From Watersipora subatra (Eukaryota > Bryozoa > Gymnolaemata > Cheilostomatida > Watersiporidae): DNA of 64,000 nucleotides. Every line of letters starts with the position of its first letter. Position 1 is the stretch's first letter. Below are positions 171 to 34,978 of this stretch, in pieces. A program made the translations under genes and the position numbers. A model generated the notes under the pieces. The model saw only the letters and a program-made list of their open reading frames with translations. It did no database searches and had not been told where the DNA came from. Location of the stretch: the NCBI RefSeq assembly GCF_963576615.1, contig NC_088708.1:27101191-27165190 (forward strand), read 5' to 3'.

Positions 171-3100
171 TCAGTTGTGTATCTTGATGGCCTTTTCCAG
201 GTAACTCGGACGAACCCTTTTTGGAGCTTTATTTACATGGTCTAATCCGAGGTAAGGCCGGTTCATTCGTGATCCTTCAACATAAAGTATATGCATAATA
301 TTAGATTAGATATACAAATATAAATCATGGTCACTGACTGGTAGTACACGCTGGAGGCAAGAGTGACAGCTCTTTAATGCTTTATCAAATGGTACGATCA
401 AACTTGAAAAATGGTAAAAACTCTCACCTACTGATGAAGTTGATTTGAAACCGCTGAGTCGTACAATGGAATCTTCTACATTGTCAATGTACATCTTTCT
501 CCCATCAGTTACGATACAAAACTTATACTAGAATAAATAAGAATAATGGCATTATGCGTAAAGTTATAGACAGACAGATCATGGGCAAGGGACAATTAAT
601 CTACATTTATGGAGTAAAACAAAAAACCCAAAACCCCTACCGACTTACAATGGCAACAGTACAGACAGTGAGTCAGCAGTACACCAGCAGTTAATACAGT
701 CAGTGAGTCAGCAGTACACCAGCAGTTAATACAGACAGTGAGTCAGCACTACACCAGCAGTTAATACAGTCAGTGAGTCAGCAGTACACCAGCAAGTAAT
801 ACAGTCAGTGAGTCAGCACTACACCAGCAGTTAATACAGTCAGTGAGTCAGCAGTACACCAGCAAGTAATACAGTCAGTGAGTCAGCAGTATACCAGCAG
901 TTAATACAGTCAGTGAGTCAGCACTACACCAGCAGTTAATACAGTCAGTGAGTCAGCACTACACCAGCAGTTAATACAGTCAGAGAGTCAGCAACACACC
1001 AGCAAGTAATACAGTCAGTGAGTCAGCAGTATACCAGCAGTTAATAGTCAGTGAGTCAGCACTACACCAGCAGTTAATAGTCAGTGAGTCAGCAGCACAC
1101 CAGCAAGTAATAGTCAGTGAGTCAGCACTACACCAGCAGTTAATACAGTCAGTGAGTCAGCAGTACACCAGCAGTTGTTACTGTCAATGAGTCAGCAGTA
1201 CACCAGCAGTTAATACTGTCAATGAGTCAGCAATACACCAGCAGTTAATACAGTCAGTGAGTCAGCAGTACACCAGTTAATAAAGTAAACAAGGCCATCC
1301 AAAACACTTGGTATTTCCTTAACACCAACCACTGCTTTTCCTTTTATCAAGTTGAATAACCTGCATCTAAGAATCAGCAGATATTCACTAGTTGCAAGTC
1401 TAAACTATTAACCGATGACTACGAAGCAGGCCTATGTGAGTCTAGAAACATGGACTAGCAGGGTCATTTGCAGACTCCTACTTACCTTCTCATAGTCCTT
1501 CTCTGGCACATCCAGTTTCTTCCGTATCCTCTCCCGCAGTGAGCTGAACAGCTCCCCATCCACAATGCGGATTAGAAATGGAAAGCCGAACAATGGATAG
1601 ATATCCTGTTGCAAAAAAATGTGAAAATCTAGTTGACAAGAGAGGACAACATCTTACACATTTATATACGTAAGCGCTCTCAATAATTCTCTAAATAATT
1701 CTGTAACAAGATAGAAAAAGGAGAAAATTGATTCGGCCGTCTGTTCACAAAGCCACTAGCCTTAAATGAACAAACTATTTATTTGCAGCGCAAATCAGAC
1801 TTTTCAACAGAAAAGCTGAAACAATCACATAAATATTACTGACTAAACAGAGGTGCAAATGAATACAATATTTTGAGTCAAATCCTACTTGGTGAAAATG
1901 TGCGACAGGTACAAGCATCTCGGAATCGCTCAAACTCGTTTCTTCCAATGGAATCTCTTCTAAACGAAGATACTTATTGCCTGACATCATTATGCTATCG
2001 ATGGGAGCATCATCCGAGTAAATGTACTGAATTCTAGAGCTGGCCACCTCCAGCAACCTAAACAACACAAATGGCAATCGTCAACATTGGATTTTTCAGC
2101 AATATAATACTAATGTAGAAAACCCGAGTTCCTGTTGACACCCACCTTAGCCTGCCAGAGCCAGCAGGGTTGAGGTCGACATGCCTGCGAGCCTCATCAA
2201 GCAATTCCTGCACAGTTCCGGTCTTGTTGGGATGTAGAACGAGCTCTCGTTCCTCCTTGCCCCTCTGAGACACCCATGTACATTTGAACTGTCGCTTGTT
2301 CTCTAGCTCTGTGATGGGAATCGACAACTGAAAAATCAAACACAATTGAATTTCATAGCCCCAAGTGTATATTTTAACATACATTTGGACTACCGCTAGC
2401 AGCTTAGGACCACTTCGTGCAGAATCCTACAAGCATAAATACCTATTCGACCATTATACATAGTTCAGTATTAGAATGACTAGTAATATAATTGTAAATC
2501 ACTAATTGATCCATCAATTAATTGTAATATAATTCTAAACGTAAATCACCGTTAAAATCAAACAGCTACGCATACGAAAAATATTTTGTTCTAAAAAGTA
2601 TTAAAACATAAAAATCACATGTAAATAAATGGTAAAGGATATTGGAACATCTCAGAAAATGCTTTGGAACATCTCAGAAAATGCTTTGGAACATCTCAGA
2701 AAATGCTTTTATGATGCCCATTTGTCATTAAATTGTATGCAAGGATCTTAGTTTTTAGTATGCAAAGCACTTTTGGGTGAGCTGCTGTTCTGTGAAATTG
2801 TCGGGTGTCAAAATTTAAAAGTTAACCAAGATGCTTTTATTTGACTCTAAGAAATTAAAGATGTGGTTGCGTCAAAAAATTCGATTTAATGAAATTAAGA
2901 CCCGTAAAAGGCTAAAACATCAGCTACAATTTGATGCCGTTTTTGTCTTTGTAGACCAACCCTGTCCAGAGATATATGCGTTTGAATGAGGCCCTCTTTT
3001 AAAAAGCTCACGTTCCAGTGGGTGCTTCTTTCATGACGTCACAAGCAATATATCTGAAAAGAAACCACGAGCGATAAATATGAGGTCGCTTCCTTAGCCA

Positions 3101-33034: not shown

Positions 33035-34978
33035 ATGGATGGAGAGTATGACCGTGACGCAGATTTACCTGACAACCCTTCATGGAGTAGAACTGCGTGG
33101 GAGGATCACTTGTTAGAAGACTTCACCGGTGAACGGGATGCACTTGATCAACAGTCAAAGTTTGAACAGGAAGCTGTTGCTCAGCAGCTTTGGCTGTCTT
33201 TTCAAAACTCTGCTTCAGCAGTAGCTAATCTTTACAAAGGTAGTCAATTGAGTAATATAATTATTAACAAGGTTACCTTAGCTGTTAATAGACTTTGAAA
33301 CAGCGAGCTCCCATTTTCATTGACGTCCAAATAAGGCGTTAGTATAGATGTTTTGTAAATACTCTTGTTTATTCACTGGTGAAGCGCAATAATTTTTAAA
33401 ATGAATGTTTTCTTTTATGCACAATCTGTCACTGGATGTATTTAAAAGTTAGTTCATAGGAATTGAAAGCAAGCTTATCAAACAAATAGCATTTATTTTT
33501 TCCTAAATGTAGGATGCTTGCAAGAAGACAATTGCTGGTCTCCCTTTCAAAATGCTGCTGGCGCTGTCACAGTATTATATAAAGGTATGCAGCCATTTAT
33601 TTATTTATCTAGATATAAGTTATTTCTGTTGTACATCTGTACTACGCCAACCTTCTAACCACTTTGTTGTACGTTTTATCGTTGACATTCTCTGGTAATT
33701 ATTAAATATTGAAATAATTGAAACTGAACATGTATTAGTTGACGCGCTGCGATTTATGCCAGAGACTGGTACACAAATTTATTTATTATTGTTTGACTTG
33801 ATATAGTTCCGCTATTCTGACCATTGTTACAACCTATTATCAACCAGCTAGTGTGAGACGTTAGGTAAGGTGAACCGTGTGAAGATGTTAATTTAGATGT
33901 TTGAAAGCCTTGCATACTGTTTTCTAGCGAAGACATTTGTTTATTGCTTACTCTTTTTTGAACTCAGATGCGATGGAAGTACAGAAGCGCAATTTTGAGC
34001 GCGGTGTTCAGTGTGGACATAACAAACGAATGCGAGACCTATTGACTTGGGTAAAAAAGAAGCGCAGACATATTCGTAGAGAAGAACTTATTGCTTTTAT
34101 CTGTGGCAAACCTCCTCCTGTTAGAACACAAAGGCATTCACCTCCGAGGTGTCGTCTAGGCTCTAGGTCACATTCAGATCGAAGTACTCCGAGGAGCCCT
34201 GTCCCACTTACAGAAAGTGAGCCAGATCTTACACCCTTTCAAAATGCTCTTGCTATACAAGGTTAGTTTTATTCCTCACACCCATCAGAAGCGTATGTAT
34301 TAGTATTCTACTAGCCATTTCATGCCATTCACATGTACATGTATATAAACCCTGTTTCAGTCACTTGTATTTTCACTGCATTTTGATGTTACACTGGATA
34401 TACTTGTAATTGAGGTTCATATCAAACTGTTCCATAGCTCTCAATGCTTACAGGTTGACAATTAGTGACAGGTTGCCAATTAGTGACATGTTGACAATTA
34501 GTGACATGTTGACAATTAGTGACATGTTGACAATTAGTGACAGTTTGACAATTAGTGACAGGTTGACAATTAGTGACAGGTTGACAATTAGTGACAGTTA
34601 AATTTCTCAGATTAACCTTGACAGTCGCCAACTAAAATATTAATCTGGTGCACAACTTTGAAAGCTTGATATGTATTTTCATTCTAATAAACCATGTTAC
34701 AAATGTTATATGTACTTTTGATTTTTTGTATCTATAGTTACTAATCCATTCAGCTTATTTGCTTTCTGTTCACATAAAATGAACTTTTCATAGGCTTGGA
34801 TGGTGCTATGTCAAGTGTGAGCATGGGTTATTCAGCAGCTGCAAAGACTAAATCTGATGAATTAAATGTACTGATCATGGACGGTCTGACAAGACATAAT
34901 GAGTCTAGGAAACGGTCTAGTGCCACTCTTGATGGAAGCAAAGACTCACCAAATAGAAAACGAAATCGATTTCTCTAA
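33035..34978 (+). CDS. HAPSTR1: HAPSTR1 (C16orf72) orthologue, stress-response partner of HUWE1
   Basis: Exons 33035-33239, 33513-33584, 33968-34261 and 34794-34978 join in phase (756 nt, 251 residues; human has 275). Hallmarks are two similar blocks, LWLSFQNSASAVANLYK (exon 1) and CWSPFQNAAGAVTVLYK (exon 2), then RGVQCGHNKRMRDLLTWVKK and IRREELIAFICGK (exon 3), and a basic end RKRNRFL (exon 4). Human HAPSTR1 is a mainly nuclear protein that binds the E3 ligase HUWE1 and tunes stress signalling; the same role here is inferred. The 5' acidic part is shorter and diverged. The start ATG opens exon 1 in the sequence TGACAATGG. Intron 3 holds an 18-bp tandem repeat. Confidence 0.95.
34450..34602. 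repeat. 18-bp minisatellite (HAPSTR1 intron 3)
   Basis: About nine tandem copies of an 18-bp unit, consensus GTTGACAATTAGTGACAT. Open frames on both strands are artefacts of the period. Confidence 0.9.

What the first reader, a model, noticed from the sequence alone, without database searches (positions are those of the whole stretch)
171..34978. USP7-HAPSTR1 head-to-head gene pair: likely ancient conserved microsynteny
USP7 (minus) and HAPSTR1/C16orf72 (plus) are adjacent and divergently oriented here, with no gene between them. As I recall, human USP7 (minus) and C16orf72 (plus) are also neighbours in the same divergent order at 16p13.2. Both proteins feed the HUWE1/p53 ubiquitin stress network. 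Conservation from an invertebrate to human would point to shared regulation or a constraint such as a bystander enhancer. The intergenic region has been invaded by transposons, yet the pair has stayed together.
Basis: partly seen in the sequence, partly recalled or inferred. Interest (0 to 1): 0.82.

Follow-up and report, generated by a model that had tools for sequence, protein, structure and literature searches.

The report
Ancient USP7–HAPSTR1 gene neighbours in bryozoan
In a bryozoan genome two stress-control genes, USP7 and HAPSTR1, sit side by side as they do in humans, apparently inherited as neighbours from an early animal ancestor; whether anything actively holds them together is not shown.

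Summary
The window lies on chromosome 1 of, almost certainly, the bryozoan Watersipora subatra (longest contig 79,350,317 bp, identical to the published figure). USP7 (minus, 25 coding exons, 171-23723) and HAPSTR1 (plus, 4 coding exons, 33035-34978) are both complete. Their start codons are 9.3 kb apart, with no assembly gap and no recognisable gene between. Each matched only here in whole-genome family searches.

A paper lists the human 16p genes as ...PMM2, CARHSP1, USP7, C16orf72... (PMC3084265). Two links of that run survive in the bryozoan, on different chromosomes: USP7-HAPSTR1 on C1 and, found here, CARHSP1-PMM tail-to-tail on C4. This favours an inherited ancestral block over chance.

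The proposed cause, shared regulation or a bystander enhancer, is not shown. The spacing argues against a bidirectional promoter, transposons have entered the gap, and the equally durable CARHSP1-PMM pair has no functional tie known to me. A protein-level tie does exist: in human cells USP7 binds and stabilises HAPSTR1 (PMC10921065, PMC11148184; passages). The multi-phylum test could not be run. New example of a known kind: deeply conserved microsynteny.

The parts
171..23723 (-). USP7 orthologue, 25 coding exons, 1122 aa, complete, no internal stop (ATG 23723-23721, TGA 173-171)
23636..23723 (-). USP7 first coding exon as modelled (placed by splice sites and phase; no clear similarity to human here)
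   Evidence: inference
17148..17256 (-). USP7 exon 6 with the catalytic Cys (human C223; codon starts at 17201)
   Evidence: Pfam UCH for the open frame
14177..14330 (-). USP7 exon 12 with the catalytic His (human H464; codon starts at 14215)
12350..12494 (-). USP7 exon 13 with the catalytic Asp (human D481; codon starts at 12482)
19657..19893 (-). USP7 exon 5, part of the MATH/TRAF-like substrate-binding domain; human R152, D164 and W165 conserved
   Evidence: Pfam MATH
23724..33034 (.). 9,311-bp interval between the two start codons; no family over Pfam cut-off in 18 of 53 frames scanned, no Rfam or tRNA hit
25820..27331 (+). broken hAT-like transposase remnant (label recalled; no Pfam hit)
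31819..32703 (.). about 880-bp multi-copy non-autonomous DNA transposon with about 140-bp terminal inverted repeats and a possible TTAA target duplication, ending 331 bp before the HAPSTR1 ATG
   Evidence: (39 other near-full-length copies, 92-94% identical, among the 40 places scored)
33035..33239 (+). HAPSTR1 exon 1
33513..33584 (+). HAPSTR1 exon 2 with the residues matching human F90, A93-A94, L100-Y101 (HUWE1 binding / oligomerisation)
33968..34261 (+). HAPSTR1 exon 3 with the residue matching human G119 (dimerisation) and the basic stretch
34794..34978 (+). HAPSTR1 exon 4, stop TAA 34976-34978; carries AMSS (human AMAS), a candidate USP7-docking motif of the [P/A/E]xxS type
   Evidence: motif class recalled
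35619..50795 (-). next gene to the right: a kinesin, KIF6-like by eye (not in the listed human 16p run)
   Evidence: KIF6 label recalled

Best explanation
[quoted passage not shown] That ancestor probably carried the run PMM2-CARHSP1-USP7-HAPSTR1, still together in human. In the bryozoan lineage the run was broken between CARHSP1 and USP7, leaving two intact pairs on different chromosomes (inferred by parsimony). The start codons are 9.3 kb apart, so separate promoters are likely. The most likely reason for retention is ordinary slow decay of adjacency. A mild selective bonus is possible, from keeping a deubiquitinase and the short-lived protein it stabilises in one chromatin and dosage unit. 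Shown: both genes, their completeness, adjacency and orientation; family matches only here; the second pair; conserved catalytic, HUWE1-binding and dimerisation residues. Inferred: ancestry of the block, and the cause of retention.
For: Complete orthologues, adjacent and divergent, family matches only here. Human adjacency stated in PMC11148184 and the run listed in PMC3084265; a chicken GGA14 region lists both genes with CARHSP1, PMM2, TMEM186 and ABAT (PMC11050503). CARHSP1 (+, C4:11657360-11657976, two exons seen) and PMM (-, C4:11658651-11662632) lie tail-to-tail about 0.7 kb apart. Chance adjacency is 1.2e-4 per pair, and two pairs from one human run far less likely. Cheilostomes are reported to share almost no microsynteny with C. 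mucedo, a nemertean or a mollusc (PMC13326412 passages; blocks of at least 4 genes). The other neighbours identified here (a KIF6-like kinesin, an F-box/LRR gene, WDR48) are not in the human run listed.
Against: Only one invertebrate was examined, so re-formation in one lineage is excluded only by probability. Human strands are recalled, and the legend of PMC3084265 lists the genes without stating that the list is positional. No expression, chromatin or non-coding data bear on why the pair was kept.
Confidence: 0.78

Rival explanations
1. Selected functional linkage: the pair is kept because USP7 protein stabilises HAPSTR1, so co-expression, co-dosage or co-inheritance of the enzyme and its client is favoured.
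For: In human cells USP7 promotes HAPSTR1 stability and is its number 2 DepMap correlate (PMC10921065); co-immunoprecipitation and co-amplification (PMC11148184); C16orf72 is one of eight proteins down 2 h after a USP7 inhibitor (PMC9225015, citing others). In the bryozoan the USP7 catalytic residues, four TRAF-domain residues checked and the HAPSTR1 HUWE1-binding residues are conserved, and the single aligned [PAE]xxS motif shared with human HAPSTR1 is AMAS/AMSS. A HUWE1-like locus exists at C3:36.459-36.477 Mb.
Against: CARHSP1-PMM, with no functional tie known to me, survived from the same run. Genes in trans can be co-expressed without linkage. The gap has taken transposon insertions.
Confidence: 0.25
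2. Regulatory block or bystander: enhancers of one gene lie in the introns or flank of the other, forbidding separation.
For: USP7 has long introns and the interval is 9.3 kb; such blocks are known in general (PMC8851819 passages).
Against: HAPSTR1 is described as ubiquitously expressed (PMC10921065), and neither gene is a developmental regulator of the usual target type (recalled). No conserved non-coding element could be sought here.
Confidence: 0.1
3. Shared bidirectional promoter.
For: Divergent orientation.
Against: The start codons are 9,311 bp apart, with an 880-bp transposon and a hAT-like remnant between them; human spacing is recalled as about 115 kb.
Confidence: 0.03
4. Coincidence: the pair re-formed independently in this lineage.
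For: The flanking genes identified differ from the human ones.
Against: 1.2e-4 per pair, 3e-5 with orientation, plus a second pair from the same human run.
Confidence: 0.03

Closest known systems
Ancient metazoan microsyntenic pairs and blocks (PMC8851819, passages; the pair catalogue of Irimia et al. 2012 is recalled, not seen)
   Same: Unrelated adjacent genes whose adjacency appears to date from an early animal ancestor.
   Different: This pair was not found in print as conserved beyond vertebrates. Its products have a demonstrated protein-level relation in human cells, unlike typical bystander pairs.
Human 16p run PMM2, CARHSP1, USP7, C16orf72 (PMC3084265, PMC11148184; passages)
   Same: Same genes, with the two outer of the three links kept.
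   Different: In the bryozoan the middle link CARHSP1-USP7 is broken and the halves lie on C4 and C1.
USP7-HAPSTR1-HUWE1-TRIP12 ubiquitin network (PMC10921065, passages)
   Same: Both genes intact here with the checked functional residues kept; a HUWE1-like locus is present.
   Different: The network is shown in mammalian cells; nothing here tests it in a bryozoan. TRIP12 and p53 were not searched.

Membership tests
Deeply conserved microsyntenic gene pair | Both genes are true orthologues | tested here: met
   (sequence similarity and family matches; no gene tree was built)
Deeply conserved microsyntenic gene pair | Adjacent with no gene between | tested here: met
   an unannotated lineage-specific or non-coding gene cannot be excluded
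Deeply conserved microsyntenic gene pair | Adjacent in at least one distant phylum | tested here: met
   human, from papers; human strands recalled
Deeply conserved microsyntenic gene pair | Adjacent in several phyla | not testable with these tools
   no other animal genome reachable; two searches found no HAPSTR1 relative
Gene regulatory block / bystander pair | Conserved non-coding elements for one gene inside or beyond the other | not testable with these tools
   no second genome for non-coding comparison
Gene regulatory block / bystander pair | One partner is a developmentally regulated target gene | not tested
   judged unlikely from a passage (HAPSTR1 ubiquitous)
Bidirectional-promoter pair | Transcription starts within about 1 kb | tested here: inconclusive
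   start codons 9,311 bp apart; transcription starts not mapped, so unlikely rather than excluded

The most novel reading that the evidence does not exclude
USP7-HAPSTR1 is a selected enzyme-client gene pair: a deubiquitinase and the unstable stress regulator it stabilises have been held side by side since the bilaterian ancestor. They outlasted the break-up of their own ancestral block, with USP7 docking on a conserved C-terminal AMxS motif of HAPSTR1.
Probability: 0.2. Interest if true: 0.7.

Novelty: new member of a known kind. Interest (0 to 1): 0.45.

Why it matters
Animal gene order between phyla is mostly lost, and bryozoans are among the scrambled ones. A surviving pair whose products are a deubiquitinase and its client gives a concrete case for asking whether protein-level partnership can preserve linkage. 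CARHSP1-PMM from the same run serves as a built-in comparison pair with no partnership known to me. In human medicine the adjacency makes USP7 and HAPSTR1 co-amplify in cancers (PMC11148184), so knowing that the linkage is ancient bears on how their dosage is normally tied.

Tried and rejected
Bidirectional promoter: judged unlikely because of the 9.3-kb spacing and the transposons. Scaffolding artefact: rejected, no N in 264 kb. Paralogue confusion: rejected for USP7 and, by Pfam, for HAPSTR1. Other animal sequences in viral contigs and genome contigs: none. Mitochondrial COX1 for naming the phylum: 0 matches; the species was identified from assembly size and longest contig. HAPSTR1 exon 3 in PDB: 0 matches.

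Control adjacencies, by Pfam family and not by identified orthologue, so weaker than the positive cases: METTL22-ABAT (PF10294, 4 matches; PF00202, 15 matches) and TEKT5-NUBP1 (PF03148, 44 matches; PF10609, 5 matches; human adjacency recalled) have no members near each other, the nearest on one contig being more than 17 Mb apart. CARHSP1-USP7 is not retained: 0 of 8 cold-shock matches and 0 of 10 PMM matches are on C1. So 2 of 5 human adjacencies tested are retained. Left out of that count: TMEM186-PMM2, not found in C4:11.64-11.68 Mb with a recalled human query, a weak test; C16orf72-GRIN2A, because GRIN2A was not searched, although the gene found next to HAPSTR1 is a kinesin.

Literature: no held paper joins USP7 with microsynteny (0 papers). 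The listings of searches (20 of 41 papers shown; 0 papers), and the passages I opened, show no description of this pair as conserved beyond vertebrates. All papers cited were seen as passages only. Lewin et al. 2025 on bryozoan scrambling and its companion were not held; I know them through passages of PMC13326412 and PMC11371463.
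Full report
What was checked. The window is G000:C1:27101191-27165190. The assembly (783,720,542 bp, 239 contigs, C1 of 79,350,317 bp, C4 of 67,125,504 bp) matches Watersipora subatra tzWatSuba1.1: 783.70 Mb (783,752,486 bp in its snail plot), 240 scaffolds, 11 chromosomes, longest scaffold 79,350,317 bp, chromosome 4 of 67.13 Mb (PMC12902671 passages). The small differences in total and contig number were not explained; the exact length of C1 makes the identification almost certain. 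The animal is a cheilostome bryozoan.

The genes. Independent of memory, the model without its last exon hits PDB chains of USP7 at E=0, 1258.8 bits, against 189.6 bits for the best other protein, USP47. The catalytic triad (human C223, H464, D481) and the TRAF-domain residues R104, R152, D164 and W165 are kept (the roles of these residues are recalled). HAPSTR1 on the plus strand has 4 coding exons and 251 aa, with 108 of 241 aligned residues identical to the recalled human protein. The residues that PMC9834230 and PMC10921065 name for HUWE1 binding and dimerisation (F90, A93-94, L100-Y101, G119; passages) are all present. In whole-genome searches PF15251 matched only this gene (2 matches, 3 candidates scored) and PF12436 only this USP7 (3 matches, 5 scored). 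Those searches score best candidates only.

The interval. The start codons are at 23723 (minus) and 33035 (plus), 9,311 bp apart, against a mean of 46.6 kb of genome per annotated gene. Of 53 stop-to-stop frames of 50 aa or more in it, 18 were scanned with Pfam, including all of 70 aa or more; none reached a cut-off. The window has no Rfam or tRNA match. The interval holds a hAT-like remnant (recalled label) and an 880-bp inverted-repeat element at 31819-32703. A genome search with the whole 9.3-kb interval gave 9356 candidate places, of which the best 40 were scored: the window itself and 39 near-full-length copies of this element, 92-94% identical. The 9356 are not all this element, and other repeats in the interval may be hidden behind it. 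Its ends carry about 140-bp inverted repeats; a TTAA duplication is possible, though other 4-5-bp matches exist. It ends 331 bp before the HAPSTR1 start codon.

The surroundings. To the right follow a kinesin (KIF6-like by eye) and an F-box/LRR gene. About 50 kb to the left of the window lies WDR48. None of these is in the human 16p run listed. Four frames between WDR48 and USP7 that were scanned gave no Pfam family, so the nature of the genes there stays open.

The second pair. PMC3084265 lists the human 16p genes as A2BP1, C16orf68, ABAT, TMEM186, PMM2, CARHSP1, USP7, C16orf72, GRIN2A (figure legend; not said to be positional, but it agrees with the map I recall). Searching for PMM (10 matches on C4, C5 and C8) and cold-shock domains (8 matches, none on C1) showed one of each side by side on C4. 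Reading the DNA shows a CARHSP1 gene, two exons seen, on the plus strand ending at about 11657976, and a PMM gene on the minus strand ending at about 11658651: tail-to-tail, about 0.7 kb apart. The human pair is recalled as convergent too. So of the run PMM2-CARHSP1-USP7-C16orf72 the two outer links survive and the middle one is broken across chromosomes. Two other human adjacencies tested by family, METTL22-ABAT and TEKT5-NUBP1, are not retained. With CARHSP1-USP7 that makes 2 retained of 5 tested.

What it means. Chance adjacency of one given pair is 1.2e-4 (3e-5 with orientation). Two such pairs from one human run make inheritance of an ancestral block by far the likeliest reading. Cheilostomes otherwise share almost no collinear blocks with a freshwater bryozoan, a nemertean or a mollusc (PMC13326412 passages). 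That analysis used blocks of four or more genes, so it is not a direct background for pairs.

Why it lasted. The protein link is stronger than the finding said. In human cells USP7 binds HAPSTR1, promotes its stability and is its second-best co-essential gene (PMC10921065, PMC11148184, PMC9225015; passages). Aligned human and bryozoan HAPSTR1 share exactly one [PAE]xxS tetrapeptide, AMAS/AMSS, which fits the recalled class of USP7 TRAF-docking motifs. Such a motif is short and could be chance. Against a functional cause stands CARHSP1-PMM: no partnership between them is known to me, yet they survived as well, though they are closer together (0.7 kb versus 9.3 kb), which by itself lowers the odds of breakage. 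I therefore rank ordinary slow decay first, selection for the enzyme-client pair second, and regulatory block or bidirectional promoter last.

Limits. One bryozoan and published statements on human and chicken are the whole comparison. Not in print, as far as the listings of searches (20 of 41 shown), 10, 27, 39, 60 and 76 and the opened passages go; the supplements of microsynteny catalogues could not be read.

Noticed in passing
G000 C4:11657360-11662632 (L028, L029): CARHSP1 (+) and PMM (-) tail-to-tail about 0.7 kb apart: a second surviving adjacency from the human 16p run that contains USP7 and C16orf72.
   Followed up: yes
window 31819-32703: Multi-copy 880-bp non-autonomous transposon (39 other copies among the 40 places scored) with about 140-bp inverted repeats and possible TTAA duplication, ending 331 bp before the HAPSTR1 start codon; it carries two CACGTG sites (32483, 32496). 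It could have replaced or supplied promoter sequence.
   Followed up: partly
window 9160-10294, 17739-19219, 4939-5859, 46206-47015: Long tandem arrays (48-, 15/45-, 32- and 55-bp units) inside introns of USP7 and of the kinesin; the 48-bp array forms a 481-aa open frame that runs on from USP7 exon 17.
   Followed up: no
window 53017-54048 (-): 344-aa open frame with a Cys-rich end and no Pfam match, between the kinesin and the F-box gene.
   Followed up: no
G000 C5:36474886-36478900 and C8:47750683-47750868: Further PMM matches: C5 has several exons, one match with a stop inside; C8 shows one match only. Among the cold-shock matches only one lies beside a PMM match, on C4.
   Followed up: no
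L010:9636-9956 and L011:5750-6055 (about 50-44 kb left of the window): WDR48, the activator of the deubiquitinases USP1/12/46 (role recalled), lies near USP7; probably coincidence.
   Followed up: partly
G000 C3:36458557-36476819: HUWE1-like locus (PF06012 below cut-off; PF06025 3 matches over cut-off), so a likely partner E3 of HAPSTR1 is present.
   Followed up: partly
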